This document shows, piece after piece, positions 3,777-30,524 of a stretch of 35,636 nucleotides of DNA (its first letter is position 1; every line of letters starts with the position of its first letter). Source of the DNA: Solirubrobacterales bacterium (GTDB lineage Bacteria; Actinomycetota; Thermoleophilia; Solirubrobacterales; 70-9); NCBI GenBank assembly GCA_017882505.1, contig JADGPJ010000022.1, forward strand, positions 1 through 35,636. The letters are read 5' to 3'. The notes below the pieces were generated by a model. The model was not told the origin of the DNA. It did no database searches and saw only the letters and a program-made list of their open reading frames with translations. Position numbers and translations under genes: made by a program.

Positions 3777-5489
3777 GTGCGTGACTTTCTCCTCACCGAA
3801 GCGCTGCGGCGCCTGGCCACCGAGGCCGCGACCAGGTTCAGCACGCTGGTCGCGAGCGGCGACCAGATCCCCTTCGACGTCGCCGCCGACGACGGCGAGG
3901 AATCCGCCTTCTACAGCTACGTGCCGCTGACCGGCCGCTATGTGGCCGAGCGCGCCGACGAGCTGCGCTCGCTGCCCAGCTTCGCTCCGGCTCGCGAGGC
4001 TGCGGTCGAGGCCGGCGTCGCCGCCTCCTACCTCGAGTCCCGCGGTGAGCCGGTCCCGGCAGACCCGGGCGAGCGCGCTGAATCGATGCTGACCACCTTC
4101 TTCTCGTCCCTTTGGGAGGGCTCCACCGGGTTCTCCCTCGACCGCGAACGTCTCGACGACGCTCTTTCGACGCTCGACGCCGAAGCGCGCGACGCCGACG
4201 ACGCCGACGTTCTGATCGTCCCGATCGTCGGTCTGAGGATGTCGATGCCGCGGCTGCAGCTCCCGCACGGGGTGAGGATCGTGCGCGCCGACTCGATCGA
4301 GGCCCCGGTCGACGCGATGCGCAGCGAGGGCATGGGGCGGGCGGCCTGGGAGCCGCAGTACCTCGCCGTCGCCGAGCAGCATCCCGACGAAGGTGCCGAG
4401 GCGGCACTGCGCCAGCTGCACGAGCTGATCAGCGTGATGAGGCTCTTCAAGGGCGGCGGTGTCGGCCTCGGCCCGCACGCGTTCGCTCCGACCGGCGCCG
4501 AGTGCTGGCGCCGGATCGCCACCGGTGCCCCGGCCACCCGGCCCGGCGGTTACCGCCTCAGCGAGGCGGAGGCCGAAGAGCTGACCGAGTTCGCCAGCAC
4601 GCTCGAGTCGAGGCCCGATCCCGACAACGCCCTCACCTGGGCGGTCGGCCGTTTCGAGATGGGCTGCGAGCGCGAGAGCGCGCTCGACGGGCTCAGCGAC
4701 CACCTGCTGGCTCTGCGCGCGGTGCTCGAGGGTCACGGGCCGGTCGGCGCCTCACTGCCGATGCGGGCGGCGGCGCTGATCTCGGACGACTCCCTGGACC
4801 GCGTCGAGGCCCGCGAGAAGGTCGAGGAGACGCTCGAGCTCGAGCGCTCGTTCATGAACGGACGCTCGCTGGAGGGGGCCACCGAGCTTGCGAGTTGGGC
4901 GGAGGAGGGCGTACGCAGGCTGCTGCGTCAGGCCGCGCTCGGCGAGCTCGGCGGCGACCTCAGCGCCACCGCCGACGAGACCCTGATCGCCACCGGCCTC
5001 GAAGGCGGCGACGCCGAGATCACCGTCTCGGTCGACGACACGCCGGGTCCCGAAGAGGAGATCGTCCCTGAGCAGAGCCCGCATATGCCCGCAGCCGAAG
5101 GCGAGGGCATGGGCGGATTTGATCCGACGCCGCCCTCATTCGGCCGCGATCACGACCTGATTCTCTCGCGGACGGATGAGGGCCCCGATGCCCACCTCCA
5201 GCCGGCACCCGAACCATTCGAGCAGGAGGAAGACATGCAGGAAACCCGCATCATGGAGCCGATCCCGGCCGCGGACGAGATCAGGATCATCGCCACTCCC
5301 TGGCTCGACGAGGTCTCGGAAGGCAACCCGGGCGACTCGCTCGAGTGGCCCGCACCCGAAACCGAGCGCGACCTGCAGCACCGCGAGCGCATCGACACCC
5401 CCCGCGTGCGCCATCTCTTCCCGGTCCCGGACGCGGACTGGGAGGTCAGCCACCTCGAGTACGAGCACTACGGCAGGGACGCGAGCTAG
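3777..5489 (+). CDS. Unrecognised 570-aa protein, possibly with an Apea/HEPN-like region
   Basis: The start is GTG (MRDFLLTEAL), preceded by a purine-rich GGAAGC stretch. I do not recognise the whole protein. Residues 1-140 and 140-280 look like folded alpha/beta sequence. Residues about 280-395 are helical (WAVGRFEMGCERES, then LLALRAVLEG, then LELERSFMNGRSL followed by a C-terminal helix). Their order resembles Apea-like HEPN domains, where a helix with RFN is followed by ALEALL and then RSxIVHG; here the RxxxxH motif appears degenerate (R357 to N361). From about 425 to 570 it is acidic and Pro-rich, likely disordered, ending in an aromatic stretch. No signal peptide or membrane helix is seen. 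Its stop overlaps the stop of the convergent ATPase gene. Function unknown. Confidence 0.72.
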   Translation: MRDFLLTEALRRLATEAATRFSTLVASGDQIPFDVAADDGEESAFYSYVPLTGRYVAERADELRSLPSFAPAREAAVEAGVAASYLESRGEPVPADPGERAESMLTTFFSSLWEGSTGFSLDRERLDDALSTLDAEARDADDADVLIVPIVGLRMSMPRLQLPHGVRIVRADSIEAPVDAMRSEGMGRAAWEPQYLAVAEQHPDEGAEAALRQLHELISVMRLFKGGGVGLGPHAFAPTGAECWRRIATGAPATRPGGYRLSEAEAEELTEFASTLESRPDPDNALTWAVGRFEMGCERESALDGLSDHLLALRAVLEGHGPVGASLPMRAAALISDDSLDRVEAREKVEETLELERSFMNGRSLEGATELASWAEEGVRRLLRQAALGELGGDLSATADETLIATGLEGGDAEITVSVDDTPGPEEEIVPEQSPHMPAAEGEGMGGFDPTPPSFGRDHDLILSRTDEGPDAHLQPAPEPFEQEEDMQETRIMEPIPAADEIRIIATPWLDEVSEGNPGDSLEWPAPETERDLQHRERIDTPRVRHLFPVPDADWEVSHLEYEHYGRDAS

Positions 5490-6640
5490 GCCCGTCCCGC
5501 CGCCATCGCCACCCGCTCCTCGCCGGTGGCGAACAGGTAACGGTTGATCTCGGCCAGGCCGGCGAGGTCGTGGACGTCCTCGTCGAGGTAGGGGACGCGG
5601 ATCACGCCGCGGGTCCGCATCTCCGAGGCGAGATGCTTGATGTTGCGGGCATCGCGCTCGGCCAGGGCCTGGTAGTCGGAGAAGTTGGCGGCAACCCGTT
5701 GGGCGAGGTCGGCGTCGCCGAGCTTCTCGGCCAGCGTCGCCGGCAGGTCGATTGGATTGGCGCCGCGCAGTTGCTCGGCCGGGTAGTGGACCTTGTTGAC
5801 GATGACGCCGCCGAAAGGGAGCTTCGCCTCGACCAGTTTGCGGTGGAAGTAGACCGCCTCGTTGATCGGCTCTCCCTGCGGGCCACAGACGACCAGGAAG
5901 CAGGTCTCGGGGTCGGCGAGCAGTTTGTTCACTCGCTTGGCCCGCGCCTGGAAGCCGTCGATCATGCCGCTGAAGGCGTTGAAGAACTCAGCCAGGTCGG
6001 CGATCAGGTCGAAGCCGACGATCCGCTTCATCACGCTGAGCGCGACCGAGGCGCCGCGGCCGGCGACCTTCGCCGCCAGGCCGGTCGGCTTCATGAAGAC
6101 GCGCAGCGAGCGACCTTCGATGAACTGGGTCAGGCGCTTCGGCGCGTCGAGGAAGTCGAGCGCGTTGCGGCTCGGAGGCGTGTCGAGGACGAGCAGGTCG
6201 AACTGGCCTTCGGTGTGGAGCTCGAACAGCTTCTCCATCGCCATGTACTCCTGCGAGCCGGCGAGGGCGCTGGAGATCTGCTGGTAGATGCGGTTTTCGA
6301 GCACCCGGTCGCGCGACTCCTCGTCGGGTGCCTGGCGGGCGATCAGCTCGTCGAAGGTCGCCTTGGCGTCGAGCATCATCGCCCACAGCTCGCCCTTCAT
6401 CTCGACCCCCTGTTTCTCGAACAGCGCCGGCTTGACCCGGCGCGCCTCGTTGCCGAGCTCCTTGAGGCCGAGCGAGTCGGCCAGGCGCTTGGCCGGGTCG
6501 ATCGTCAGCACGCAGACCTTCAGCCCCTGGGCCGCCATCCCGGTCGCGATCGCCGCCGAGGTGGTCGTCTTGCCGACCCCGCCTGAGCCGGCGCAGATGC
6601 AGATCGTCTTGCCCTCGAGGACCTCGTCGAGCGTCGGCAT
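5486..6640 (-). CDS. Get3/ArsA-family ATPase, second subunit (BagB-like)
   Basis: The 384-residue protein has the ArsA/Get3 fold: P-loop GSGGVGKTT at residues 18-26, then VLTIDPAKRLADSLG (switch I-type Asp), then LLVLDTPPSRNALDFLDAP (switch II) and VVCGPQGEPINEA near the adenine site. The intradimer signature lysine of the deviant Walker A (GKGGVGKT) is Ser19 here, while the partner gene keeps it. No CxxC zinc motif of tail-anchor-binding Get3 is present. The ATG overlaps the stop of the upstream partner by one base (TGATG). Length and order match M. tuberculosis Rv3679-Rv3680 (BagA/BagB, about 340 and 386 aa), described as an ATPase complex linked to stress tolerance; assignment to that pair is by resemblance, not alignment. 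It is unlikely to be an arsenite pump component because no arsB or arsenic-binding Cys set is seen. Confidence 0.83.
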   Translation of the reverse strand: MPTLDEVLEGKTICICAGSGGVGKTTTSAAIATGMAAQGLKVCVLTIDPAKRLADSLGLKELGNEARRVKPALFEKQGVEMKGELWAMMLDAKATFDELIARQAPDEESRDRVLENRIYQQISSALAGSQEYMAMEKLFELHTEGQFDLLVLDTPPSRNALDFLDAPKRLTQFIEGRSLRVFMKPTGLAAKVAGRGASVALSVMKRIVGFDLIADLAEFFNAFSGMIDGFQARAKRVNKLLADPETCFLVVCGPQGEPINEAVYFHRKLVEAKLPFGGVIVNKVHYPAEQLRGANPIDLPATLAEKLGDADLAQRVAANFSDYQALAERDARNIKHLASEMRTRGVIRVPYLDEDVHDLAGLAEINRYLFATGEERVAMAAGRA

Positions 6641-7560
6641 CAGGAGAGCCTCCGCGAAAGCCTTCGCGCCGCCTCGGGCCCGAGCTCCGGCTCGAAGAGG
6701 AAGGGCAGGGTCTTGACCGGGGCCTCGACCCGGCGGCGCAGGCGAGCCAGCTGGGCCCGCTGCGAGCGAGCCCGCCGGTGCTCGGAGAGCGCCGCCCGGG
6801 CGGCGGCCCTGACGGCGCCGTCCTCGCCGTCGGCGAGCCCCTCCAGCCGCTCGGCCTCGGGCTTGGAGAAGCGCTCCGGGTAGAGGCCGTTGAGGTAGAC
6901 GCGGTCGACCGCGACCCCGACCTCGTCGCGCAGCTCCCTCTCCAGTGCCGCCGACTCGTTGACCGGCATCTCCTCCGGCAGGGCGACGATCGCCGTCCCG
7001 GTGTTCTCGTGGTCGGTGATGAAGCGGTCGAGCGTCTGCGCCTGGCTGTGGATCGGGCCGACGCGGGCGATCGAGGCGAAGGTGCGCGGCGTCTGCAGGA
7101 AGCCGACGCCGTGGCCGGTGGCCGGCGCGTCGACGATCACGAGGTCGTATTTGCGGCCCGACTTGACCTTGCGGTCGAGCTGCGCCAGCTCCCAGATTTT
7201 GCCGATCGTGACCAGCTCCTTGAGGCCGGGGGTGGCGGCGGCGAGGTAGTTGAAGATGCGGCTGCGGAAGAGCATGTCGCGCATCGCCCGCACCTTCAGC
7301 TGCAGCAGCACGTACTCGCGCATCGACTCGTCGGGATCGATCGAGATCGACCAGAGGTTCTCCTCCATCTCGACCTCGTGGAAGCCGACCGCGGTGTGGT
7401 CGAACATCCGCGAGGTGTTCTCCTGGGAGGAGACCTCGCAGACGATCGTCCGCTTCCCTTCCGCCGCGGCGCGGAGGCCGAGCGCCACCGCGACCGTCGT
7501 CTTGCCGACGCCACCCTTGCCGGTGACGATCACCAATCGCTTGTCGAGGAGTTCGGGTAT
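6640..7560 (-). CDS. Get3/ArsA-family ATPase, first subunit (BagA-like); start codon uncertain
   Basis: The recognisable protein starts at PELLDKRLVIVTGKGGVGKTTVAVAL, with both signature lysines of the deviant Walker A (K15, K20 counting from the codon before PELL). It continues with VCEVSSQENTSRMF and LVIVDAPATGHGVGFLQTP (switch II) and an NGLYP motif. The codon where an ATG is expected is ATA (7560-7558), preceded by AGGA at an 8-nt spacing. In-frame canonical alternatives are ATG at 7650, which overlaps the divergent ParA gene by 25 bp, and TTG at 7626; both add about 22-30 unconserved residues. From ATA it is 306 residues. It is cotranscribed and coupled with the second subunit, probably forming an asymmetric heterodimer. 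Confidence 0.78.
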   Translation of the reverse strand: MPELLDKRLVIVTGKGGVGKTTVAVALGLRAAAEGKRTIVCEVSSQENTSRMFDHTAVGFHEVEMEENLWSISIDPDESMREYVLLQLKVRAMRDMLFRSRIFNYLAAATPGLKELVTIGKIWELAQLDRKVKSGRKYDLVIVDAPATGHGVGFLQTPRTFASIARVGPIHSQAQTLDRFITDHENTGTAIVALPEEMPVNESAALERELRDEVGVAVDRVYLNGLYPERFSKPEAERLEGLADGEDGAVRAAARAALSEHRRARSQRAQLARLRRRVEAPVKTLPFLFEPELGPEAARRLSRRLS

Positions 7561-7625: not shown

Positions 7626-8768
7626 ATGGGATTTCTAAGCCGCAAGCCAAAGCCCGCGCCCGTGACGATCGAGGAGCCGCATCCGATGGTCGAGGAGCTC
7701 CAGCGTATGGAGGAAGCCGTGCCGGAGCGTCCGTCAGACGATTTCGAGGAGACCTACGTCGCGCAGTCCGAGGAGGATCAGTACTCCGACGAGTACGAGG
7801 ACTCCGACGGGGACTACGCCGATGAGGAGATGCCGGCGGAGGAGCCGGTCGCCAGGGCGGTTACCTACGCGGAGCCTGAGGTCGAGGATCAGCCGGAGAT
7901 CGCCGTCGAGGAGGACGACGGGCGGATGAAGGCGATCGATCTGATCGCGCCGAGCCGGCTCGACTTCGTCGCCGAACGCGAGGCCGAGCAGGAGGTCCCG
8001 GTCAAGCACGCGGACGTGATCGCCTTCGCCAACCAGAAGGGCGGCGTCGCCAAGACGACGACGACCCTCAACCTCGCCGTCGCCTTCGCCGAGTTCGGCT
8101 ACCGGGTGCTCTGCATCGATCTCGACCCGCAGGGGAACCTGACGATGAGCCAGGGGATCGACCCCGACAAGGTCGAGAAAAGCCTCTACGACGTCCTCGT
8201 CAACGACATGCCGATCAAGGAGATCATCGTCGAGCGCGAGATCGACATCGCCGTCGCCTCGATCGACTTGGCCGGCGCCGAGATCGCGATGAGCACGAAG
8301 ATCGGCCGCGAGCGCTCGCTCGAGAAGGCGCTGAAGGAAGTCTCCGGCGACTACGACTTCGTCTGCATCGACACGCCGCCGAGCCTCGGTCTGCTGACCA
8401 TCAACGCGCTGACGGCGGCGGACAAAATAATCGTCCCCGTCCAGTGCGAGTATCTCTCGATGCGTGGCCTGGTCCAGCTTCAGAACACGCTGAAGATGAT
8501 CCAAGAGAACCTCAACCCGGACGTCAGGATCGAGGGCATCTTGCCGACCATGTTCGACGCGCGGACCGTCCACGCCAAGGAGGCGGTGGAGATCCTCGAA
8601 GAGAACTTCGGTGACCTCGTTTTCCACTCCCGCATCCGCAAGGCGGTCAAATTCGCCGAGGCGCCCGTGAAGGGTGCGAGCGTCCTCAAGTACGATTCCG
8701 GCAGCAGCGCCGCGAACTACTATCGGGAGCTGGCGAAGGAGGTTTTGGCGAATGGCTCGGCGGAATAA
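7626..8768 (+). CDS. parA: ParA/Soj-family ATPase with acidic N-terminal extension
   Basis: The 380-residue protein has a ParA/MinD ATPase domain from about residue 128: IAFANQKGGVAKTTTTLNLA (deviant Walker A, signature K138 and catalytic K143), CIDLDPQGNLT (Walker A'), and DFVCIDTPPSLGLLTINAL (Walker B). It ends with ILPTMFDARTVHAKEAVEILEENFG and RKAVKFAEAPVKGASVL, typical of Soj. Residues 1-127 are an unusual low-complexity, highly acidic tract (EDQYSDEYEDSDGDYADEE) after a basic MGFLSRKPKP start. ParA ATPases position chromosome origins or other cargo on nucleoid or membrane; no parB lies beside it. Instead its last 17 bp overlap an FtsZ-family gene, suggesting a job in division-site or polar positioning. 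A shorter product from Met101 is possible. Confidence 0.88.
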   Translation: MGFLSRKPKPAPVTIEEPHPMVEELQRMEEAVPERPSDDFEETYVAQSEEDQYSDEYEDSDGDYADEEMPAEEPVARAVTYAEPEVEDQPEIAVEEDDGRMKAIDLIAPSRLDFVAEREAEQEVPVKHADVIAFANQKGGVAKTTTTLNLAVAFAEFGYRVLCIDLDPQGNLTMSQGIDPDKVEKSLYDVLVNDMPIKEIIVEREIDIAVASIDLAGAEIAMSTKIGRERSLEKALKEVSGDYDFVCIDTPPSLGLLTINALTAADKIIVPVQCEYLSMRGLVQLQNTLKMIQENLNPDVRIEGILPTMFDARTVHAKEAVEILEENFGDLVFHSRIRKAVKFAEAPVKGASVLKYDSGSSAANYYRELAKEVLANGSAE

Positions 8769-10266
8769 GCGCGCAAGCATGCGCGAGGGCCCCCTCGCCG
8801 ATCTCTTCCGCTCCACCTCAGAAGAAGCGCCCGCGGATCCGCCCGAGGAGCCGCGTTACGGACGGCTGGATCCGGCTGAGGCGCAGAAGCGTGAGGACGA
8901 AGCAGCCCAGGCCGCGGGTCCTGTCGCGGGGGACGACTCCTCGTCCGCGCGAGCTGCGGGCGAGGAGCCATCCCCCCCGCCACCCGCGGCAGAGGCCGCT
9001 CCGGCTGACGCAGCTCCAAAGGCTCCGTTCTTCGATCAGGCGTCCGACGAGCCGATGGTTGAGGAGCCTGCGGAGAGCTCCGAGAGTGCGCCCGAGCGCC
9101 TGAAGAGAGTCTTTTCGGAGGAACCGAAGCCGCGGCGCGAGGAGTACGCGCCGGGCAACCCGCGCTACGGGCGCGAGGAGCCGGCGTACGAGCCGCCCGG
9201 GAGCGGTGAGCCGCACCAGCCGGTGATCAAGGTCGTCGGCGTCGGCGGCGCCGGCGTCAACGCGGTCAACCGCATGGTCGACGCCCGCATCCCCGGGGTC
9301 GACTTCATGGCGGTGAACACCGACCTTCAGTCGCTGCAGCTGTGCGTCGCCGACGTCACCGTGCATATCGGTGACGAGCAGACGCGCGGCCTCGGCGCCG
9401 GCGCCGACCCCGAGGTCGGGCACCGCTCGGCCTTCGAGGAGCAGGACAAGATCAAGCGCCTGCTGAAGGGCTCCGACATGGTCTTCGTCGCCGCTGGAGC
9501 CGGCGGCGGCACCGGCAGTGGTGCCGCGCCTGTGGTCGCCCGCCTCGCCCGCGAGGTCGGGGCGCTGACCGTCGGCATCGTCACCAAGCCGTTCAGCTTC
9601 GAGGGCAACCGTCGCGGCGATCAGGCCAACAAGGGGATCGAAGAGCTCGCCTCCGAGGTCGACACGCTGATCGTCGTCCCCAACGACCGCCTGCTCGAGG
9701 TGCTCGACCAGCAGACCTCGATGGTCGAGGCCTTCCAGGTCGCCGACGACGTCCTGCGCCAGGGCGTTCAGGGCATCTCCGACCTGGTCACGCTTCCGGC
9801 CGTGATCAACCTCGACTTCGCCGACGTGCGGACGATCATGTCCGACGCCGGCCGGGCGCTGCTCGGGATCGGCATGGCTTACGGCGACGACCGCGCGGTC
9901 CTCGCCGCCGAAAAAGCGATCTCCTCGCCGCTGCTCGAGACCTCGATGGAGGGAGCGCGCTCGATCCTGCTCTCGATCACCGGCGGCAGCGACCTCTCGC
10001 TGGTCGAGGTCAGCGAGGCGGCGAAGGTCGTCGGCGAGGCCGCCCATCCGGACGCCAACATCATCTTCGGCGCCAACGTCGACGACGAGATCTCCGACCA
10101 GATCTGGGTCACGGTGGTGGCGACCCGCTTCGACGGCCGGACGCCACCGCGGCGCGCCACCGAGCCGACCATCCGTCGCACCAAAGACGCCCCGGCCGGA
10201 CGCCAGGGTCGCTCCGAGCGTGGGGGCGAGCTCGGCATCGACGTCCCCGAGTTCCTCCCCGGGTAG
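8752..10266 (+). CDS. ftsZ: FtsZ-family tubulin-like GTPase with long N-terminal extension
   Basis: I start at MARRNKRASM because AAGGAGG (8736-8742) sits 9 nt upstream, inside the end of parA. The 504-residue protein has a disordered, Pro/Glu/Ala-rich extension (1-157) carrying PRYGR motifs twice (34-38 and 137-141). A complete FtsZ domain follows: VIKVVGVGGAGVNAVNRM, the tubulin signature GGGTGSG at 251-257, KPFSFEGNRR, and T7 loop NLDFAD at 353-358 with the catalytic acidic residues. The C-terminus IDVPEFLPG resembles the conserved FtsZ tail peptide that binds FtsA/SepF/ZipA-type partners. Retained motifs predict an active polymerising GTPase that forms or modulates the Z-ring. Typical FtsZ is about 350-450 aa with no such extension, and no division/cell-wall cluster genes flank it, so it may be a second FtsZ. 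Confidence 0.92.
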   Translation: MARRNKRASMREGPLADLFRSTSEEAPADPPEEPRYGRLDPAEAQKREDEAAQAAGPVAGDDSSSARAAGEEPSPPPPAAEAAPADAAPKAPFFDQASDEPMVEEPAESSESAPERLKRVFSEEPKPRREEYAPGNPRYGREEPAYEPPGSGEPHQPVIKVVGVGGAGVNAVNRMVDARIPGVDFMAVNTDLQSLQLCVADVTVHIGDEQTRGLGAGADPEVGHRSAFEEQDKIKRLLKGSDMVFVAAGAGGGTGSGAAPVVARLAREVGALTVGIVTKPFSFEGNRRGDQANKGIEELASEVDTLIVVPNDRLLEVLDQQTSMVEAFQVADDVLRQGVQGISDLVTLPAVINLDFADVRTIMSDAGRALLGIGMAYGDDRAVLAAEKAISSPLLETSMEGARSILLSITGGSDLSLVEVSEAAKVVGEAAHPDANIIFGANVDDEISDQIWVTVVATRFDGRTPPRRATEPTIRRTKDAPAGRQGRSERGGELGIDVPEFLPG

Positions 10267-13026: not shown

Positions 13027-13039
13027 GCCTGTTTCAGGC
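13027..13039. terminator. Small hairpin between convergent genes
   Basis: GCCTG-TTT-CAGGC forms a 5-bp stem between the adenylate cyclase and the convergent methyltransferase, overlapping the latter's stop. There is no U-tract. A weak bidirectional terminator is possible. Confidence 0.25.
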
Positions 13040-13957
13040 CGCCGGCTTGCGGCCGGAGACGAGCAGGTTGTAGAAGAGCTCGGCCGGCAGGCGGGGCTCG
13101 AGCAGGCCGGTGTCGACCTTCTGCAGGGCGATGTAGCTGCGGAAGGCGAAGCGGCGCCACCGCAGCGAGACCGATTCCGGCTCGGCGCTGGACTCGACCG
13201 CACGCAGCCCCCAACCCCAGGCGTTGGAGAGCAGCTCCTCGCCGCCGACGCGGCGATCCTCGAAGCCGCCGTCGCGGAGCAGTTTCCGCAGGTCGGCCGG
13301 GGCGAAGGCGTGGACGTCGACCTCCCCCTCCAGCGCGTGCCCGCCCGACTGCTCGGCTTCCGGCACGGCGCGGCGCCGGGCCCCGATCAGGCGCCGCCAG
13401 GCGGGGGCGACGAGCAGCCCGGCGCGCTTGGGCAGCGCCGCCAGGCGGTCGCCGTGGCGCGAGGGCTCGCCGGCGAAGGCGATCATCCCACCCGGTCGCA
13501 GCACCCGCTTGAATTCGGCGAAGGCGCGGTCGAGGTCGGGGATGTGGTGCAGGACCGCGTGGCCGAAGACGAGGTCGAAGCTCTCGTCCGCGAAGGGAAG
13601 CTCCTCGGCCTCGGTGGCGACGGTGGTGATGCCGTCGAGATCCAGCGTCGCGGCGGTGGCCGCGAGTCGCCTCAGCATCCCGGGTGAGATATCGGTCGCG
13701 GTCAGGTGCTCGATCACGCCGAGCTGGACCAGGTTGAGCGAGAAGTAGCCGGTGCCGGAGCCGATCTCGAGCGCGTCGCCGAAGCGGCGACCGTCGAGTC
13801 CGCCCAGCGCCTTGACCAGTTTCAGCCTCACCTGCCGCTGGCCGATGTCGCCGAAGTCGATTCCCCACTTGGCGTCGTACTCCTCGGCGGCGGCGTCGTG
13901 GTAGCGCGTGTTGACGTCCTTGATGTGCTCCGGGGTGGCGGTCGGGGAGGCGGGCAT
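13034..13957 (-). CDS. SAM-dependent class I methyltransferase
   Basis: This 307-residue protein has a clear Rossmann methyltransferase core: motif I ALEIGSGTGYF around residues 62-72, ATDISPGMLRRL (acidic ribose-binding residue), ELPFADESFDLVFGHAVLHHIPD (motif IV region), and FKRVLRPGGMIAFAGEPSRHGDRL. The C-terminal third, with RWRRFAFRSYIALQKVDTGLLEPRLPAELFYNLLVSGRKP, is not general. The gene is divergent from the methyltransferase-GH57-GT4 operon by 121 bp, so it may modify the same product; M. tuberculosis also has further methyltransferase genes in its MGLP region. The substrate is not readable from sequence. A -10-like TAGAGT lies 9 nt upstream of the ATG. Confidence 0.85.
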   Translation of the reverse strand: MPASPTATPEHIKDVNTRYHDAAAEEYDAKWGIDFGDIGQRQVRLKLVKALGGLDGRRFGDALEIGSGTGYFSLNLVQLGVIEHLTATDISPGMLRRLAATAATLDLDGITTVATEAEELPFADESFDLVFGHAVLHHIPDLDRAFAEFKRVLRPGGMIAFAGEPSRHGDRLAALPKRAGLLVAPAWRRLIGARRRAVPEAEQSGGHALEGEVDVHAFAPADLRKLLRDGGFEDRRVGGEELLSNAWGWGLRAVESSAEPESVSLRWRRFAFRSYIALQKVDTGLLEPRLPAELFYNLLVSGRKPAA

Positions 13958-13966
13958 CGGACGGGA

Positions 13967-13972
13967 ACTCTA
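13967..13972 (-). promoter_or_regulatory. Candidate -10 box (TAGAGT) for the minus-strand methyltransferase
   Basis: On the minus strand TAGAGT ends 9 nt before the ATG at 13957, with no Shine-Dalgarno sequence between. This fits near-leaderless initiation. No clear -35 was found. Confidence 0.4.
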
Positions 13973-14078
13973 CGCAGAACGGCGCAATCGACGGAGCGCA
14001 GGTAGCTTCTCCGTGAGTGCGGAGCGACCAAGCATCCATATCTGACTCCCTGCGCAGGGAGCGAAGCGCGAAATTGGT

Positions 14079-14849
14079 TTGAGCGCGGAGGAGTACCTAC
14101 AGCTGAACCAGCCCCCGGGGGTGCCGCCGCTGCCGCTGACCGGGGAGCGGACCCTGCCCGACGTGCCGGAGGAGAACTACTGGTACCGGCGGCACCTGGT
14201 CGTCTACGAGTGGATTGCCGCCAGGGTCGCCGGCCTGCGGGTGGTCGACATGGCCTGCGGAGAGGGCTACGGCTCCGACGTCCTCGCCGCCAGCGCCGCG
14301 AGCGCCATCGGCGTCGACGCCAACCCGGAGGCGCACGAGCACGCGCGGCTGCGCTACAGGCGTCCCAACCTGCGCTTCGAGCGCGACCTCGTCGAAGGCT
14401 TCTCGGAGCCCTGCGACGCCGTCGTCTTCCTGCAGACGATCGAGCACGTACAGGACCCGGGGGCGATCCTCGAGCACTTCAAGTCGATGCTGACACCCGG
14501 CGGCGTCGCCTACCTCTCAACGCCGAACCTGCTGACCCTGGCGCCGCCTGGGGCGGAGAAATCCGACAACCCCTGGCACGTCCACGAGTATCGCGCCGAC
14601 GAGTTTCGCCGGCTCTGCGAGGCGCACTTTCCCCGGGTCGAGATGCGCGGCCTCTTCCACGCCCGCAAGCTGCGGGCGCACGAGCTGGCGATCAAGCTGG
14701 GCTGGGACAGAGTCCACGAGCGCCTCGGCCTGACCAGGCCGTTCTACGACCGCTTCACGCCGGCGATCGCCGCCTCCGACTTCGCCCTGCGCGAGGGCGA
14801 CCTCGACCGTGCCCTCGACTTCCTCGCGGTTTGCCATATGCCGGCATGA
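14079..14849 (+). CDS. SAM-dependent methyltransferase, first gene of GH57-GT4 operon (Rv3030-like)
   Basis: Best start is TTG (MSAEEYLQLNQPPG); no ATG is available nearby and the Shine-Dalgarno is weak. The 256-residue protein has motif I VVDMACGEGYGSD (residues 55-67), IGVDANPEAHEHAR, DAVVFLQTIEHVQDP, and MLTPGGVAYLSTPN. The motif NPWHVHEYRADEFRRLCE is typical of glycan-related methyltransferases. It overlaps the GH57 gene by ATGA, and a GT4 glycosyltransferase follows. This three-gene order is that of M. tuberculosis Rv3030-Rv3031-Rv3032, where the methyltransferase is proposed to act on methylglucose lipopolysaccharide. The same role here, O-methylation of an alpha-glucan, is inferred from order and family. 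Confidence 0.83.
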   Translation: MSAEEYLQLNQPPGVPPLPLTGERTLPDVPEENYWYRRHLVVYEWIAARVAGLRVVDMACGEGYGSDVLAASAASAIGVDANPEAHEHARLRYRRPNLRFERDLVEGFSEPCDAVVFLQTIEHVQDPGAILEHFKSMLTPGGVAYLSTPNLLTLAPPGAEKSDNPWHVHEYRADEFRRLCEAHFPRVEMRGLFHARKLRAHELAIKLGWDRVHERLGLTRPFYDRFTPAIAASDFALREGDLDRALDFLAVCHMPA

Positions 14850-16258
14850 GGGGCGAGGAGAGCGCCGGGGACCTGGCGATCGTCCTCCATTCCCACATGC
14901 CCTACGTCGAGGGGTTCGGGACCTACCCGTTCGGCGAGGAGTGGCTGTTCGACGCGGTGATCCGCTCCTACCTGCCGGTGCTTGAGCTGGCGCGGGACCT
15001 GACGATGACGGTGACGCCGGTGCTCGCCGACCAGCTCGAGGACGAGGGAACCCGGCGGCGGTTGCGCGACTTCCTGCTCGAGTGGCGGATCGGCGCCGCC
15101 GAAGCCGACCTGGGCGAGGTGCCGGAGGAGTGCCGGCCGGCCTGCCGGGCGGAGCTGGCCCGCTACCGCCGGGCGCTGGAGCTGCTCGACGAATTCGACG
15201 GCGACCCGCTGGCCCCGTTCCAGCGGGCAGCGGGGGAGGGGAGGGTGGCGCTGGCCGCCTCCTCGGCGACCCACGCGGTGCTGCCGCTGCTGGCGACGCG
15301 GGAGGGGCTGGCGCTCCAGCTCGACGCCGGCATCCGCTCGCACCGCCGGCGCTTCGGCTGGGACGGTGGGCTATGGCTGCCCGAGTGCGCCTACGTGCCC
15401 GGCCTCGAGCGGCGGTTGGCCGAGCACGGCGTGGAATGGTTCTGCGTCGACCAGAGCGCCCACGAGGAGCCGATGGAGGCGCTGGCGCCGGTGCGGACGG
15501 AGTCCGGGCCGACCGCGCTGCCGATCGATTGGGAGGCGGTCGGCTGGCTCTGGTCGCTCGACGGCTACCCGTCCGACCCCGCCCACGCCCAGTTCGAAGG
15601 CAAATCGCTGCGGGGTATCCGCCTCTGGAAGGTGGGAGGAGGCGCCTACGACCCGGCTGCGGCGCAGGCGGCGGCCCGCCGTCAGGCCGGCGAGTTCCTT
15701 GCCGCCGCGGCCACCCGTCTGCGCGCCTTCACCGCCGAGCGCGGGCGCCGCGGCCTGCTCGTCTTCGCGATCGACACCGAGTTGCTCGGCCACTGGTGGT
15801 CGGAGGGCCCGATCTGGCTCGGTGCGGTGCTGGAGGGAGCGGCGGCGGCCGGCGTGCGACTGCTGACGGCGCCGCGGGCGATCGCCGAGCACGAGCCGGT
15901 CGAGCGCCGGCTGGCCGCCTCCAGCTGGGGCGAGGAGAAGGACTTCCGCACCTGGGACTCGCCCCCGGTCGCCGACATGGCCTGGGGGGCGCGACGGCTG
16001 GAGCTGCGCCTCCTGCGAGCGCTCTCGGAGGGTCTGCGCGGCGACCCGGCGCTGCGCGCCGCCCGCGAGCTGATGGCCGTCCAGGCGAGCGACTGGGCCT
16101 TCCTCGACCTGCGGGGCCAGGCCGGCGACTACGCCTACCAGCGAGCGACCGATCACGCCCGGGCGATGTTGGAGGCCATAGACTCCCCATCTGTCACCGA
16201 TCCGCGTATGCGTTCTCTCGCCCCGGATATGAGCATCGCTCCCCTGCTGGAGCCCTGA
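14846..16258 (+). CDS. GH57/DUF1957-type 1,4-alpha-glucan branching enzyme (Rv3031-like)
   Basis: The ATG overlaps the methyltransferase stop (ATGA), giving 470 residues. Features are an N-terminal LAIVLHSHMPYVEGFG (GH57 motif with the substrate His), LWLPECAYVPGLER with predicted nucleophile Glu180, and FAIDTELLGHWWSEGP with predicted acid/base Asp310. These are followed by a helical C-terminal domain and WDSPPVADMAWG...LRAARELMAVQASDWAFL, a hallmark of bacterial GH57 branching enzymes. The enzyme cuts alpha-1,4 glucan chains and rejoins them as alpha-1,6 branches in the cytoplasm. The length is slightly short of the usual 500-530. It is linked to a GT4 glucosyltransferase 10 bp downstream and a coupled methyltransferase upstream, suggesting a modified branched glucan rather than plain glycogen. 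Confidence 0.88.
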   Translation: MRGEESAGDLAIVLHSHMPYVEGFGTYPFGEEWLFDAVIRSYLPVLELARDLTMTVTPVLADQLEDEGTRRRLRDFLLEWRIGAAEADLGEVPEECRPACRAELARYRRALELLDEFDGDPLAPFQRAAGEGRVALAASSATHAVLPLLATREGLALQLDAGIRSHRRRFGWDGGLWLPECAYVPGLERRLAEHGVEWFCVDQSAHEEPMEALAPVRTESGPTALPIDWEAVGWLWSLDGYPSDPAHAQFEGKSLRGIRLWKVGGGAYDPAAAQAAARRQAGEFLAAAATRLRAFTAERGRRGLLVFAIDTELLGHWWSEGPIWLGAVLEGAAAAGVRLLTAPRAIAEHEPVERRLAASSWGEEKDFRTWDSPPVADMAWGARRLELRLLRALSEGLRGDPALRAARELMAVQASDWAFLDLRGQAGDYAYQRATDHARAMLEAIDSPSVTDPRMRSLAPDMSIAPLLEP

Positions 16259-16268
16259 TTCGCCCCGA

Positions 16269-17465
16269 ATGACCCGCATCCTGATCCTCTCCTGGGAGTA
16301 CCCACCCCTGATCGAGGGAGGACTGGCGCGGCACGTGCGCAAGCTCTCCGAGGCGCTGGTCGAGCGCGACGTCGAGGTCCACGTCCTCACCCGCGGCGGC
16401 GAGGAGTCACCGGCCGAGGAGCGCAACGGCGGCGTCTTCATCCACCGCATCCTCGAGCCGAAGCGACCGACCGACCTCGGCGAGTTCGTCGCCTGGGTCG
16501 AACGGATGAACTCGGACATGCTGGCCGCTGGCGTCGAGCTCGGCGACCGCTACAGCTTCGATCTCGTCCACGGCCACGACTGGCTCGTCGCCAACGCCTG
16601 CGACCATCTCGCCAACCGCTTCGACGCGCCGCTGGTGACGACGATCCACGCGACCGAGTACGGCCGCCACCAGGGCTGGGTCGACAAGCACCCCCAGTCC
16701 TACATCCACGGGGTCGAGCGCTGGATCACCAACCGCTCCCAGCGGGTGATCGCCTGCTCCCATTACATGCGCGAGCAGATCGTCGACATCTTCGGGGTCG
16801 AGGAAGAGCGGGTCAGCGTCATCCCGAACGGGATCGATCCCGGCGATCTGCCGGCCCAGGAGCCGGCAGAGCTGGCGAAGCTGCGAGCCGAGTTCGCCGG
16901 GCCGGACCAGAAGCTGGTGCTGCTGATCGGCCGGCTGGTCTACGAGAAGGGCTTCCAGCTGGCGCTGGAGGCGATGCCGAGGGTGATCGAGGAGGCGCCG
17001 GGGACGCGCTTCCTGGTCGCCGGCTCCGGCACCCACGAGGCGGAGCTGCATCGCCAGGCCGAGGAGCTGGGGCTGATGGAGCACGGCACCTTCCTCGGCT
17101 GGATCGGCGACGACGTCCTGCACTCGCTCTACCGGATCGCCGACCTCACCGTGGTCCCCTCGATCTACGAGCCGTTCGGGCTGGTGGCGCTGGAGGCGAT
17201 GGCTTCGGGCTGCCCCTGCATCGTCGCCGACACCGGCGGCCTGCGCGAGGTCGTCCCCCACGAGGAGGCAGGTCTGCGCTTCCGCGCCCACGACCCCGAC
17301 GCGCTCGCCGAGGTCGCGGTCCGCGTCCTCTCCGACGACGAGCTCGGCCGCCGCCTGGTCGCCGAAGCCTACGAGCACGTGCGCCGCTTCGACTGGGGCG
17401 ACGTCGCCGAGCAGACCGCCGCGGTCTACGCCGACCTGGTCGGGGCCACGCTCGACCCCGCCTAG
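16269..17465 (+). CDS. GT4 glycosyltransferase, glycogen-synthase-like alpha-glucosyltransferase (Rv3032-like)
   Basis: This 398-residue GT-B enzyme begins MTRILILSWEYPPLIEGGLARHV, the glycine-rich acceptor-side loop typical of bacterial glycogen synthases. It continues with LVHGHDWLVANA and VTTIHATEYGRHQGW. The donor domain has VSVIPNGIDP, VLLIGRLVYEKGFQLALEA and the EX7E motif EPFGLVALEAMASG (Glu301 and Glu309). M. tuberculosis Rv3032 of this family elongates alpha-1,4 glucans for methylglucose lipopolysaccharide and capsular glucan. It is the third gene of the methyltransferase-GH57-GT4 unit, 10 bp after GH57. It is cytoplasmic, with no membrane helix. The donor (UDP- or ADP-glucose) cannot be told from sequence. 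Confidence 0.88.
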   Translation: MTRILILSWEYPPLIEGGLARHVRKLSEALVERDVEVHVLTRGGEESPAEERNGGVFIHRILEPKRPTDLGEFVAWVERMNSDMLAAGVELGDRYSFDLVHGHDWLVANACDHLANRFDAPLVTTIHATEYGRHQGWVDKHPQSYIHGVERWITNRSQRVIACSHYMREQIVDIFGVEEERVSVIPNGIDPGDLPAQEPAELAKLRAEFAGPDQKLVLLIGRLVYEKGFQLALEAMPRVIEEAPGTRFLVAGSGTHEAELHRQAEELGLMEHGTFLGWIGDDVLHSLYRIADLTVVPSIYEPFGLVALEAMASGCPCIVADTGGLREVVPHEEAGLRFRAHDPDALAEVAVRVLSDDELGRRLVAEAYEHVRRFDWGDVAEQTAAVYADLVGATLDPA

Positions 17466-17493
17466 CTGCCGCGGGATCGCCGAAGCCAATAAG

Positions 17494-17522
17494 TCCACAG
17501 TGATCGCGTCGCAGGATAGGCT
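17494..17522 (+). promoter_or_regulatory. Candidate promoter upstream of the small secreted protein
   Basis: TCCACA (17494-17499, four of six matches to TTGACA) and TAGGCT (17517-17522) are separated by 17 nt. This is the best-spaced -35/-10 pair I see in the window. It supports separate transcription of the downstream secreted protein. Confidence 0.45.
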
Positions 17523-17597
17523 CGATCCCACCGTGTCCGTACCAGGGCTCCGGGGATGGCGAACAGCGAAACCGGGGTCCGCAAAAGAAGGGTCGCC

Positions 17598-17939
17598 ATG
17601 AGAGTGAAACGCCTGATCGGTGTCGCTATCGCCACCTTTGCGCTGGTCGGAATCCTCGCCCTGCCAGCCGCCGCCGCAGTGTTCCTGCCGGCGCCAACCG
17701 CGGCCAGCAAGTCGTTCAACTTCGCCCAGAACACCTGCAACCACGATCCGCACTGCGTCAAGTTCGGTGTCACCAATTGCCGCCGCATCAGCCTGCACGT
17801 CGTTTTCTGTCGGATCTTCGACGACCGGGAAACTGCCGTTCAGGGCCGTTACACCTGCACCAAATTGGTACGGGTCGTACTTGACCCGGAGACCTTTCGC
17901 GTTCTCGTAACCGGGACCGGCCCCTACCACTGCGGCTGA
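17598..17939 (+). CDS. Small secreted six-cysteine protein of unknown function
   Basis: Starting at MRVKRLIGV gives a textbook signal peptide: basic n-region, hydrophobic core IAIATFALVGILAL-like, and an AAAA|V cleavage site near residue 27. GAAGGG lies 5 nt upstream. An in-frame ATG at 17556 would add 14 residues. The mature part of about 86 residues has six Cys (in NTC, PHC, TNC, VFC, YTC and YHC contexts), enough for three disulfides, and ends in a Cys-Gly. I do not recognise the family. It sits just after the GT4 gene and before a convergent acyltransferase. M. tuberculosis Rv3033, at the equivalent place, is also a small predicted secreted protein, but I cannot say the two are homologous. 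Confidence 0.7.
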   Translation: MRVKRLIGVAIATFALVGILALPAAAAVFLPAPTAASKSFNFAQNTCNHDPHCVKFGVTNCRRISLHVVFCRIFDDRETAVQGRYTCTKLVRVVLDPETFRVLVTGTGPYHCG

Positions 17940-17987
17940 TCCAGGAGCTCGATGCTCGACGTGAGAGGGGTCAACGTGTCACCGATC

Positions 17988-18001
17988 CCGGCGATCGCCG
18001 G
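17988..18001. terminator. Hairpin between convergent genes
   Basis: CCGGC-GATC-GCCGG forms a 5-bp stem with a 4-nt loop, downstream of the secreted protein gene and of the acyltransferase on the other strand. There is no T-tract. The rest of the 127-bp gap (17940-18066) shows nothing recognisable. Confidence 0.25.
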
Positions 18002-18066
18002 AGAGTGATGCTGGAGCTGACCGAGCTGGGCCGAGGAGCGCGCCGGCATCGAGGAGAGCGGGCCGG

Positions 18067-18714
18067 CTAGCTCGGAGGGCGCAGCGTCGTCGCCGCGGCA
18101 GGGTCGGGCTCGACGGGATCCGCCCAGCGCAGGTCCGCGGGTGCCTCACGCATCCTGATCACCCGCGCCGGGCTGCCGGCGACCACGGCGTTGGCGGGAA
18201 CGTCCTTGGTGACCACGGCGTTGGTGCCGACGATCGAGTTGTCGCCGACCCGAACCCCGCGCAGGATGCAGGCGCCGTAGCCGATCCAGACGTTGGATCC
18301 GACCTCGACGTCGCGCTTGTAGATGCCCTGGACGCGGATCGGCCGCTCGACTTCGACGACGCCGTGGTCGAAGTCGATGAACATCGCCCGGTCGGCGATC
18401 ACGCACTGCTCGCCGATCCGCACCCGCTGGTAGGCCGAGATCGTGCACTCCTGCCCCATCACCGTTTTCTCGCCGATCTCGACCACCCCCTCGTGGCAGC
18501 GGATCTTCGAGCCGTCGCCGATCCAGACGAAGCGGCCGAAGCGCACCTGCGCCTTGGGGGCGATCTCGATTTCGAGGCGGCGACCGAGGAAGAGCATTCC
18601 CTCGGTGCTCCAGCGCCGGCCGCCCGTGGTCAGCGCCCGTCGCCACAGGTAGCGCCACAGCAACCGCGCGTAGTGACGGTTGAGCATTCCGTTGCGGGTC
18701 AGGAAGCGGATCAC
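18067..18714 (-). CDS. Left-handed beta-helix (hexapeptide repeat) acyltransferase
   Basis: The start is GTG (MIRFLTRNGMLNRHY). The 215-residue protein carries hexapeptide repeats from about 50 to 190, such as VRFGRFVWIGDGSKI, VEIGEKTVMGQECTI, VEVGSNVWIGYGACIL and VRVGDNSIVGTNAVVTKDV. It closes with the family hallmark GSPARVIR. Such trimeric enzymes transfer acetyl or other acyl groups from acyl-CoA to sugars; an FDHG motif is present where a catalytic His is often found. It lies on the opposite strand downstream of the methyltransferase-GH57-GT4-secreted protein group, the same position and strand as Rv3034c in the mycobacterial MGLP region. O-acylation of that glycan is therefore a reasonable but unproved role. 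Confidence 0.86.
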   Translation of the reverse strand: MIRFLTRNGMLNRHYARLLWRYLWRRALTTGGRRWSTEGMLFLGRRLEIEIAPKAQVRFGRFVWIGDGSKIRCHEGVVEIGEKTVMGQECTISAYQRVRIGEQCVIADRAMFIDFDHGVVEVERPIRVQGIYKRDVEVGSNVWIGYGACILRGVRVGDNSIVGTNAVVTKDVPANAVVAGSPARVIRMREAPADLRWADPVEPDPAAATTLRPPS

Positions 18715-20199: not shown

Positions 20200-21954
20200 A
20201 TGGCACTGCTGATCCTCTTCGGGTTCATCGCCGGCGCCGGCACGGCGCTTTCGCCGTGCGTGCTGCCGGTGCTGCCGATCGCGCTCTCGGCCGGCGCCAC
20301 CGGCGGTCGCCGCCGCCCGCTCGGCATCGTCGCCGGCCTGGCGGTCTCCTTCACCTTCGCCACGGTGGCGCTTGTCTACGTGATCTCCGCCCTCGGCCTG
20401 CCGAACGACTTCCTCCGCAAGTTCGCGATCGTGATCCTGCTCGGCTTCGGGATCACGCTGATGATCCCGCCGCTCGCCGCCCGGCTCGAGGCCTGGATCA
20501 GCCAGTTCGCCAGCCGGGCCGGGGTCGCCAGGGGCAAGGGCGACGGCTTCTGGTCGGGAACCGCCGTCGGCGCCAGCCTCGGCCTCGTCTACGCGCCCTG
20601 CGCCGGCCCGATCCTGGCCGGCGTCATCACCGTCTCCGCTTCGCAGGCGTTCGACACCGGCCGCCTCGCGGTTGCCCTCAGCTACGGGGTCGGCTCCGCC
20701 GCGGTCCTCTACTTCCTGATGCTCGGCGGCCGCAAGGTCGTTGCCCCGCTGGCCCGCCGCGGCGTCGGCCTGCAGATCGCGATGGGGGCGGTGATGGTCG
20801 TCGTCGCGCTGGCGATGCTGCGCAACTACGACGTCAGGTTCCAGAACACGATCGCCAGCGACCTGCCGAGCTTCCTCGTCAACCCGACCGAAAGCCTGGA
20901 GCGCACCGCCGCGGCGCGGTCGGCGCTGGCCGACATCCGCGGCGCCTCCTCCCACGGCGTCGGCGCCAGGGCGGCGAGCGCGGCGAAGCCCAGCGCCGGC
21001 GCGGGCGGTCACCTCGACCTGCCGGTGCTCGGCAAGGCGCCGGAATTCGTCGGCAACGAGCAGTGGTTCAACACCCCTGGTGATCAGCCACTGACCTTGA
21101 AGCGGCTTCGCGGCCGCGTCGTCCTCGTCGACTTCTGGACCTACAGCTGCATCAACTGCCTCCGCACCCTGCCCTACCTGAAGGCCTGGGACGCGAGATA
21201 CCGCAGGGACGGGCTGACGATCGTCGGCATCCACACTCCCGAGTTCCCGTTCGAGCGCGAGGCGAGCAACGTCGAAGCGGCGATTCACGAAAACGACATC
21301 CGCTATCCCGTCGCCCAGGACAACGAACAGGCGACCTGGAACGCCTACGGCAACCAGTACTGGCCGGCCGAGTACTTCATCGATGCCAAGGGCGACGTCC
21401 GCTACGTCCATTTCGGCGAGGGCGAATACGGCGAGAAAGAGCAGGTGATCCGCGACCTCCTCGCCGAAGCCGGGAGGAAGGTCCCGGATAAGAAGACCCG
21501 GGTCCACGCGGTGACGCCGTCGACGACCGTGGCCACGCCGGAGACCTACCTCGGCGCCGCCCGGGCCGAACGCTTCACCAACCCGATGTTCTCACCCGGC
21601 CCGCACGACTTCAGCGCTCCCGCGGCGCTGCCCGAGAACGAATTCGCCTACCACGGGCGCTGGCGGATCGCGCTCGACTCGGCCACCGCGGAAGGGGGCT
21701 CGCTCGACCTCAACTTCAGCGCCCGTCGCGTCTACCTGGTGCTCGGCTCGCCCGGCCAGGATCGCAAGGTGAGGGTGAAGCTCGACGGCAAGCCGATCTC
21801 CAGCGTCGACGCCGGCTCCGACGTCCACGGCGCCGCCGTGGACGTCAGCTCGCAGCGCCTCTACAACCTCGTCGACCTGCCCAGGGTCGGCCAGCACGTT
21901 CTCGAACTCGAGCCCGAAGCCGGGGTGATGGGCTATGCGTTCACCTTCGGATAG
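20200..21954 (+). CDS. dipZ: DipZ-like CcdA-thioredoxin fusion protein
   Basis: GGAAAGG lies 9 nt upstream of ATG 20200, giving 584 residues. Residues 1-215 are a CcdA-type membrane domain of about six helices, with redox Cys in TALSPCVLPVLPIALSAGATGG and VYAPCAGPILAG. A linker leads to an extracytoplasmic thioredoxin/TlpA-like domain (about 275-430) with VDFWTYSCINCLRTLPYL, active-site Cys317 and Cys320. The C-terminal 140 residues form a beta-rich domain (LDLNFSARRVYLVLGSPG) as in mycobacterial DipZ. The protein should carry electrons from cytoplasmic thioredoxin across the membrane to reduce exported disulfides. It is shorter than Rv2874 (about 695 aa), from memory. An adjacent two-component system overlaps or nearly abuts its 3' end. 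Confidence 0.92.
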   Translation: MALLILFGFIAGAGTALSPCVLPVLPIALSAGATGGRRRPLGIVAGLAVSFTFATVALVYVISALGLPNDFLRKFAIVILLGFGITLMIPPLAARLEAWISQFASRAGVARGKGDGFWSGTAVGASLGLVYAPCAGPILAGVITVSASQAFDTGRLAVALSYGVGSAAVLYFLMLGGRKVVAPLARRGVGLQIAMGAVMVVVALAMLRNYDVRFQNTIASDLPSFLVNPTESLERTAAARSALADIRGASSHGVGARAASAAKPSAGAGGHLDLPVLGKAPEFVGNEQWFNTPGDQPLTLKRLRGRVVLVDFWTYSCINCLRTLPYLKAWDARYRRDGLTIVGIHTPEFPFEREASNVEAAIHENDIRYPVAQDNEQATWNAYGNQYWPAEYFIDAKGDVRYVHFGEGEYGEKEQVIRDLLAEAGRKVPDKKTRVHAVTPSTTVATPETYLGAARAERFTNPMFSPGPHDFSAPAALPENEFAYHGRWRIALDSATAEGGSLDLNFSARRVYLVLGSPGQDRKVRVKLDGKPISSVDAGSDVHGAAVDVSSQRLYNLVDLPRVGQHVLELEPEAGVMGYAFTFG

Positions 21955-28266: not shown

Positions 28267-28267
28267 C

Positions 28268-29053: not shown

Positions 29054-29056
29054 GCG

Positions 29057-30067: not shown

Positions 30068-30456
30068 TCGCCAAGCCAGGCCTCGACGGCCACGACCGCG
30101 GCGCCAAGATCATCGCCCGTGCCCTGCGCGACGCCGGCATGGAGGTCATCTACACCGGCCTGCACCAGACCCCCGAGCAGATCGCCGAGACGGTGATCCA
30201 GGAGGACGCCGACGCGGTCGGCCTCTCGATCCTCTCCGGCGCCCACATGACCCTGGTGCCCAGGGTCGTCGCCCTGCTCCACGAACAGGGCGTCGACGAC
30301 GTCCTCGTCACCGTCGGCGGCACGATCCCCGCCGATGACATCCCGGAGCTGAAGAAGCTCGGCGTCGCCGAGGTCTTCACTCCCGGCGCCGGCACCGACG
30401 AGATCGTCGACTTCATTCGCGAGGGCGCCACCGAGCGCCACGAGCGCGGCGAGTAG
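30031..30456 (+). CDS. B12-binding subunit of acyl-CoA mutase (methylmalonyl/isobutyryl type)
   Basis: The 141-residue stand-alone cobalamin-binding domain begins [34 protein letters not shown], with the DxHxxG motif whose His21 replaces dimethylbenzimidazole as cobalt ligand. The rest of the pattern follows: [11 protein letters not shown] and [25 protein letters not shown]. This matches the C-terminal domain of methylmalonyl-CoA mutase or the small subunit of isobutyryl-CoA mutase. It needs a separate catalytic large subunit, which is not in the window. MeaB, its expected chaperone, is encoded at 18.7 kb. It overlaps the EamA gene by 37 bp and precedes the etf operon by 169 bp. Confidence 0.92.
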
Positions 30457-30508
30457 CGCTCTTTACACGGATCGGTGCATAGGTTCGCCGATCGGGGTAT
30501 CATCCTGA

Positions 30509-30524
30509 TTGACTCGTCAGTCAA
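30509..30524. promoter_or_regulatory. TTGACT-N4-AGTCAA dyad upstream of etfB
   Basis: Perfect 6-bp half-sites are separated by four bases in the 169-bp leader region of the etf operon. The form resembles TetR-family operators such as those controlling fatty-acid genes; no TetR gene is in the window, so the regulator is unknown. A TAGGTT (30480-30485) lies upstream as a weak -10 candidate. Confidence 0.42.

What the first reader, a model, noticed from the sequence alone, without database searches (positions are those of the whole stretch)
13034..18714. A glycan locus colinear with the mycobacterial MGLP region
Seen: methyltransferase (14079), GH57 (14846) and GT4 (16269) on plus, then a small secreted protein on plus and a hexapeptide acyltransferase on minus, with another methyltransferase divergent at the left. 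Known (from memory): M. tuberculosis Rv3030-Rv3031-Rv3032 are a methyltransferase, a GH57 protein and an alpha-glucosyltransferase; Rv3033 is small and secreted; Rv3034c is a transferase on the opposite strand; the region is tied to 6-O-methylglucose lipopolysaccharide. Gene order and strands agree over five genes. Inferred: this organism makes a branched, O-methylated and O-acylated cytoplasmic alpha-glucan, a class thought to be largely mycobacterial.
Basis: partly seen in the sequence, partly recalled or inferred. Interest (0 to 1): 0.8.

Follow-up and report, generated by a model that had tools for sequence, protein, structure and literature searches.

The report
MGLP-like methylated glucan gene cluster
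A soil-type actinobacterium far from Mycobacterium carries the same five-enzyme gene set that mycobacteria are thought to use to build an unusual methylated sugar polymer, but without the genes that start that polymer in mycobacteria and without ordinary glycogen genes.

Summary
Five form a conserved set: methyltransferase MTb, GH57 branching-type enzyme, GT4 glucosyltransferase, hexapeptide acyltransferase HEX and divergent methyltransferase MTa. Mycobacteriales-type genomes carry the same set, matching the gene list published for the MGLP cluster Rv3030-Rv3037c.

All five genes occur in 29 of 39 fetched loci of the window's order. In 12 of 12 genomes tested, the best matches of HEX and MTa are the cluster copies.

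The setting differs from mycobacteria. In 61 genomes of the order, GlgC was found in 0, phosphorylase in 2 (weak), GH13 branching enzyme in 9, and the MGLP octanoyltransferase over its cut-off in 0. The primer enzyme GpgS is patchy (34 of 61) and was not found in the window's genome. I call it an MGLP-core cluster for an O-methylated, acylated alpha-glucan with a different start, not MGLP proper. The product is untested.

The parts
13034..13957 (-). MTa, SAM-dependent methyltransferase, Rv3037c-type; divergent from MTb
   Evidence: Methyltransf_11; best match in 12 of 12 genomes is the cluster copy; present in 36 of 39 order loci, always upstream and divergent there
13958..14078 (.). intergenic stretch of 121 bases between the divergent MTa and MTb genes
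   Evidence: coordinates; promoters not analysed
14079..14849 (+). MTb, SAM-dependent methyltransferase, Rv3030-type (proposed 6-O-methyltransferase)
   Evidence: Methyltransf_23; LTGERT and ENYW invariant in 20 aligned homologues; present in 38 of 39 order loci, 8 of 8 f32 loci and 13 of 13 others
14846..16258 (+). GH57 branching-type enzyme, Rv3031-type
   Evidence: Glyco_hydro_57 and BE_C over cut-off; E180 and D310 invariant in 19 aligned homologues; found in 58 of 61 order genomes
16269..17465 (+). GT4 glucosyltransferase, Rv3032-type
   Evidence: Glycos_transf_1 and Glyco_transf_4; best match is the cluster copy in 10 of 12 genomes
17556..17939 (+). SEC, small putatively secreted protein; not part of the conserved set
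   Evidence: no family; best match in 140 loci has E 1.3; GC 0.617 and GC3 0.773 against 0.69-0.74 and 0.92-0.95 for the five others
18067..18714 (-). HEX, hexapeptide-repeat O-acyltransferase, Rv3034c-type
   Evidence: Hexapep; best match in 12 of 12 genomes is the cluster copy; His117 invariant in 19 aligned homologues

Best explanation
The locus encodes the extension and decoration core of a cytosolic, branched, O-methylated and O-acylated alpha-glucan oligomer, related to mycobacterial MGLP but started differently. Proposed working: GT4 extends an alpha-1,4-glucan from a nucleotide sugar, most likely UDP-glucose because no GlgC was found; GH57 makes the alpha-1,6 link or links; MTb 6-O-methylates the chain; MTa adds a second kind of O-methylation; HEX esterifies the polymer with short acyl groups from acyl-CoA. 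Shown by computation: enzyme families, conserved putative catalytic residues, gene order shared with Mycobacteriales-type genomes, best matches, and failure to find the glycogen genes, OctT and GpgS in this genome. Inferred: substrates, product, cytosolic site, order of steps, and a primer other than octanoylated di-glucosylglycerate.
For: Five-gene set in 29 of 39 order loci, 5 of 8 f32 loci and 6 of 13 other loci, and in 31 of 70 named loci counted as actinobacterial. Best match in the cluster for HEX 12 of 12, MTa 12 of 12, GT4 10 of 12. Same gene list as the published MGLP cluster (passages). f32 genomes, which carry the same set, have OctT in 8 of 8. GlgC 0 of 61, phosphorylase 2 of 61 and GH13 branching enzyme 9 of 61 argue against glycogen. 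9 GH57 loci from other lineages have none of MTb, HEX and MTa. Passages report that Rv3032 serves MGLP and has little or no role in bulk alpha-glucan.
Against: No primer enzyme was identified. GpgS was not found over cut-off in this genome, and OctT over cut-off in none of 61. Substrates of the two methyltransferases cannot be read from sequence or models. GT4 is missing from the fetched locus in 7 of 39 order loci, two of them cut by a contig end, and HEX in 6 of 39. No chemistry exists for this order.
Confidence: 0.68

Rival explanations
1. Ordinary storage glycogen: GT4 is the glycogen synthase, GH57 the only branching enzyme, and the methyltransferases and acyltransferase are unrelated neighbours.
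For: GH57 with BE_C resembles known GH57 branching enzymes and amylases in the PDB. No GH13 branching enzyme was found in 52 of 61 order genomes, so GH57 could be their only branching enzyme. GT4 scores against glycogen synthase families, below their cut-offs.
Against: GlgC found in 0 of 61 and phosphorylase in 2 of 61, both weak. MTb goes with the GH57 in 38 of 39 order loci and all 21 other fetched loci, whereas 9 GH57 loci of other lineages lack it. GlgE and debranching enzymes were not searched.
Confidence: 0.13
2. Full mycobacterial-type MGLP with a glucosylglycerate end and octanoate; the missing genes are draft gaps or too divergent for the models.
For: The core gene set is the same, and GpgS is over cut-off in 34 of 61 order genomes.
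Against: OctT over cut-off in 0 of 61, with two weak sub-cut-off matches. 18 of 41 good-quality GH57 carriers lack GpgS over cut-off. No GpgP or OctT beside RsfS in this genome.
Confidence: 0.08
3. A surface or lipid-linked glycan, with HEX as an O-antigen-like acetyltransferase.
For: HEX scores against exopolysaccharide and lipopolysaccharide O-acetyltransferase families, below their cut-offs. A putatively secreted protein sits in the window's copy.
Against: No flippase, polymerase or ABC-exporter family among the window ORFs scanned; an EamA transporter lies about 10 kb away. SEC is not conserved. A GH57 branching-type enzyme implies an alpha-1,4-glucan.
Confidence: 0.08

Closest known systems
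Mycobacterial MGLP cluster (Rv3030, Rv3031, Rv3032, Rv3034c, Rv3037c)
   Same: Same five enzyme types with MTb, GH57 and GT4 in one row, HEX and MTa nearby on the opposite strand; best-match relation to the Mycobacteriales-type copies.
   Different: MTa lies divergent on the left instead of downstream; no conserved Rv3033-like gene; OctT not found in the order and GpgS not in this genome; no GlgC-type glycogen background.
Mycobacterial 3-O-methylmannose polysaccharide (MMP) cluster
   Same: A small cluster of a glycosyltransferase and methyltransferases for an O-methylated polysaccharide (passages of PMC9883506).
   Different: MMP genes are MeT1, ManT, pMeT3 and the hydrolase MmpH; ManT shares only 28-33% with Rv3032 and Rv1212c (passages).
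GH57 glycogen branching enzymes of Thermococcus and relatives
   Same: Same GH57 family; PDB chains named alpha-amylase GH57, TT1467 and similar are the nearest solved relatives.
   Different: The 9 GH57 loci from such lineages in the named set have no MTb, HEX or MTa; one has a GT4.

Membership tests
MGLP biosynthesis system (mycobacterial) | Rv3030-type methyltransferase, Rv3031-type GH57 and Rv3032-type GT4 in a row on one strand | tested here: met
   Window coordinates; same row in 8 of 8 f32 loci
MGLP biosynthesis system (mycobacterial) | Rv3034c-type acyltransferase in the cluster | tested here: met
   HEX best match is the cluster copy in 12 of 12 genomes
MGLP biosynthesis system (mycobacterial) | Rv3037c-type second methyltransferase in the cluster | tested here: met
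   MTa best match is the cluster copy in 12 of 12 genomes; identity with Rv3037c rests on position and published gene list
   No relative of SEC in 140 loci (best E 1.3) and none among 24 ORFs between GT4 and HEX in f32 loci
MGLP biosynthesis system (mycobacterial) | GpgS primer synthase in the genome | tested here: not met
   Own genome best 46 bits against a cut-off of 262; 34 of 61 order genomes over cut-off; own genome is a 93% complete draft
MGLP biosynthesis system (mycobacterial) | OctT octanoyltransferase in the genome | tested here: not met
   0 of 61 order genomes over cut-off, 8 of 8 f32
MGLP biosynthesis system (mycobacterial) | GpgP phosphatase | tested here: inconclusive
   Not beside RsfS in the own genome; not searched genome-wide
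MGLP biosynthesis system (mycobacterial) | 6-O-methylglucose polymer with acyl groups | not testable with these tools
   Needs chemistry
Classical glycogen system | GlgC ADP-glucose pyrophosphorylase | tested here: not met
   Own genome none; 0 of 61 order genomes at E 1e-40
Classical glycogen system | Glycogen phosphorylase | tested here: not met
   Own genome none; 2 of 61 order genomes at E 1e-10, both weak
Classical glycogen system | GH13 branching enzyme | tested here: not met
   Own genome none; 9 of 61 order genomes at E 1e-60
GH57 branching enzymes | GH57 domain, BE_C domain and the two catalytic acids | tested here: met
   that E180 and D310 are the catalytic pair is recalled
GH57 branching enzymes | Branching activity | not testable with these tools
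   Needs an assay

The most novel reading that the evidence does not exclude
An O-methylated, acylated alpha-glucan pathway that needs no glucosylglycerate primer is old in Actinomycetota and is the only alpha-glucan system in much of the window's order and in some other families. Mycobacterial MGLP would then be a derived form in which a GpgS-GpgP-OctT starting module joined this older core.
Probability: 0.35. Interest if true: 0.75.

Novelty: new variant of a known kind. Interest (0 to 1): 0.55.

Why it matters
The literature passages I saw describe MGLP as made by mycobacteria and a few Nocardia strains, call its GH57 member uncharacterised and doubt its proposed role in fatty-acid synthesis. 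Here the same core sits in bacteria in which I found no GlgC and almost no phosphorylase, so a polymer could be isolated with little glycogen background and the GH57 tested directly. Genomes with the core but no detected GpgS question the published proposal that Rv3031 makes the di-glucosylglycerate primer: either it branches glucan, or another primer exists. Cultured carriers with all five genes are available (Conexibacter arvalis, Svornostia abyssi).

Tried and rejected
SEC as Rv3033 counterpart: rejected. Ordinary glycogen cluster: rejected on GlgC, phosphorylase, GH13 enzyme and the conserved methyltransferases. True MGLP: rejected for this genome on GpgS and OctT. Fold searches with confident models (mean pLDDT 88 and 92) gave only generic class I methyltransferases, with RebM and AtmM among MTa's nearest; they do not fix a substrate. 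A link to the ETF genes (30509-32392) is suggestive only: ETF genes adjoin MTb in 8 of 8 f32 loci but lie about 13 kb from the cluster here, and the fetched order loci are too short to test it.

Literature. Paper searches listed no report of this cluster outside mycobacteria and Nocardia-type bacteria. This rests on titles and abstract starts; some searches showed only part of their hits (20 of 165, 15 of 775, 10 of 15, 10 of 20). Mendes 2012 and Chandra 2011, which may discuss distribution, were seen only as reference-list entries. PMC11046441 has none of four MGLP terms in the 300,000 of 445,374 characters held.

Limits. Absences are by family score in drafts, with strict E limits for GH13 (1e-60), GlgC (1e-40) and phosphorylase (1e-10). 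The 12 genomes were picked by me. Bit thresholds are my own. The tree is a quick one. The window's proteins were never aligned with the named M. tuberculosis proteins.
Full report
What is there. The window is one whole contig of a 2.63 Mb draft genome. Between 13034 and 18714 lie MTa (-), MTb (+), GH57 (+), GT4 (+), a small putatively secreted protein SEC (+) and HEX (-), followed by MeaB (+). MTb and GH57 overlap by 4 bases and GT4 begins 10 bases after GH57. By the same length match it also holds Patulibacter minatonensis and a MAG titled Thermoleophilaceae.

Conservation in the order. GH57 is found in 58 of 61 genomes of the order, own genome included; in G001, G059 and G060 only a fragment is found. 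I fetched 60 loci: 39 from the order, 8 from family f32 and 13 from elsewhere in the phylum. Of the 39 order loci, 38 have MTb, 32 GT4, 33 HEX and 36 MTa; 29 have all five. Some gaps are contig ends (for example L104, L110); others are not (GT4 in L092, L094 and L096; MTb in L087). MTa is divergent and upstream of MTb in all 36 order loci that have it.

Conservation outside. Of 296 genomes drawn from the phylum, 67 have a GH57 match; all 18 listed genomes of the same class but another order lack it. In f32, 8 of 8 loci have MTb, GH57 and GT4, 6 have HEX and 5 have MTa in the stretch fetched; 5 have all five. Of the 13 other loci, 6 have all five. HEX is on the opposite strand to GH57 in four of the six f32 loci that have it and on the same strand in two; MTa is on the opposite strand in five of five.

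What f32 is. Its GH57 rows group with Millisia and Williamsia (Mycobacteriales) in a quick tree. OctT is over cut-off in 8 of 8 of its genomes. One f32 genome has beside RsfS a protein matching PDB entries named glucosyl-3-phosphoglycerate phosphatase (E 2e-73), with relatives at the same place in two more. ETF genes lie just upstream of MTb in 8 of 8; that Rv3028c-Rv3029c are ETF genes is recalled. I therefore use f32 as the MGLP-type reference. The named M. tuberculosis proteins themselves were not compared.

Named loci. I counted 70 as actinobacterial, meaning an Actinomycetota label or MTb or HEX present, a rule that favours MTb. Of these 69 have MTb, 54 GT4, 57 HEX, 43 MTa and 31 all five. 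The other 10 are 9 loci from Thermococci and further lineages, none with MTb, HEX or MTa (one, L219, has a GT4), and L147, an unlabelled record that falls within the window's family in the tree and lacks MTb. Cultured carriers with all five genes include Conexibacter arvalis and Svornostia abyssi; Patulibacter minatonensis has no GT4 in the fetched stretch.

Are they true counterparts? In 12 genomes picked by me, own included, the best match of HEX is always the cluster copy (111 bits or more; the next-best match in any genome is 78 or less), and so is that of MTa (182 or more against 52 or less). In G075 the cluster is split over two contigs. GT4's best match is the cluster copy in 10 of 12; in G040 it lies about 134 kb from GH57, and in G144 no cluster copy was seen. 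GH57's E180 and D310 are invariant in 19 aligned homologues, HEX's His117 in 19, and MTb's LTGERT and ENYW in 20. The catalytic roles of these residues are recalled.

Published cluster. Passages of PMC2674218 and PMC4995917 give the MGLP cluster as Rv3030-Rv3037c: glucosyltransferase Rv3032, putative acetyltransferase Rv3034c, putative methyltransferases Rv3030 and Rv3037c, potential branching gene Rv3031. Passages of PMC4555173 name GpgS, GpgP and OctT as early steps, call Rv3030 the 6-O-methyltransferase and propose Rv3031 for di-glucosylglycerate synthesis. Passages of PMC4981310 say Rv3032 is thought to use UDP- and ADP-glucose and has little or no role in bulk alpha-glucan. Passages of PMC6629080 say Rv3031 is uncharacterised.

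The setting differs. GlgC: 0 of 61 order genomes, 8 of 8 f32, 1 of 1 f40, 0 of 10 from families f23, f29 and f51. Phosphorylase: 2 of 61 (44 and 67 bits), 6 of 8 f32, 1 of 1 f40, 0 of 10. GH13 branching enzyme: 9 of 61. OctT over cut-off: 0 of 61, with two weak sub-cut-off matches (G036, G051), 8 of 8 f32, 0 of 11 others. GpgS over cut-off: 34 of 61; 18 of 41 good-quality GH57 carriers lack it. In the own genome none of these five was found, and no GpgP or OctT sits next to RsfS. These results count against a full MGLP and against glycogen alike. GpgS in 34 genomes leaves open that part of the order starts its chain as mycobacteria do.

Mechanism, shown and inferred. Shown: families, putative active-site residues, gene order, best matches, genes not found. 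Inferred: GT4 extends alpha-1,4-glucan from UDP-glucose, GH57 forms alpha-1,6 links, MTb and MTa O-methylate, HEX acylates from acyl-CoA, and the chain starts on something other than octanoylated di-glucosylglycerate. Against: no primer enzyme is identified, and methyltransferase substrates cannot be read from the models.

Verdict. It works like the MGLP core but is not filed as MGLP, because two defining features (GpgS in this genome, OctT in the order) were tested and not met. New variant of a known kind; interest 0.55.

Noticed in passing
G040:C1:1882038-1883213 and 1891800-1893653: In G040 the GT4 ortholog has left the cluster and lies about 9 kb from a GH13 branching enzyme.
   Followed up: no
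L116 (G060), about 9300-9400 and 5112-7250: Only an N-terminal GH57 remnant of about 27 residues is left beside MTb, and a DUF3417-phosphorylase protein lies nearby; looks like local decay or replacement.
   Followed up: partly
L166, L182: Records titled Bifidobacterium breve and Chlamydiae bacterium carry a Solirubrobacterales-type cluster and fall among Solirubrobacterales in the GH57 tree; probably mislabelled MAGs.
   Followed up: no
window 7626-10266: A ParA-like ATPase (AAA_31) gene next to an FtsZ-domain protein, just before the GGT gene; the pair recurs in many loci of the order.
   Followed up: no
window 27082-34129: Thiolase, HAD, EamA, ETF beta, ETF alpha and ETF-QO genes in a row on the same contig; ETF genes adjoin the cluster in f32.
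   Followed up: partly
window 20200-21954: A DsbD-like membrane part fused to redoxin and Thioredoxin_10 domains; relatives lie right beside MTa in L085, L113 and L114.
   Followed up: no
L188 (Actinokineospora inagensis): MTa, HEX, MTb, GH57 and GT4 lie in a row on one strand, as if one operon.
   Followed up: no
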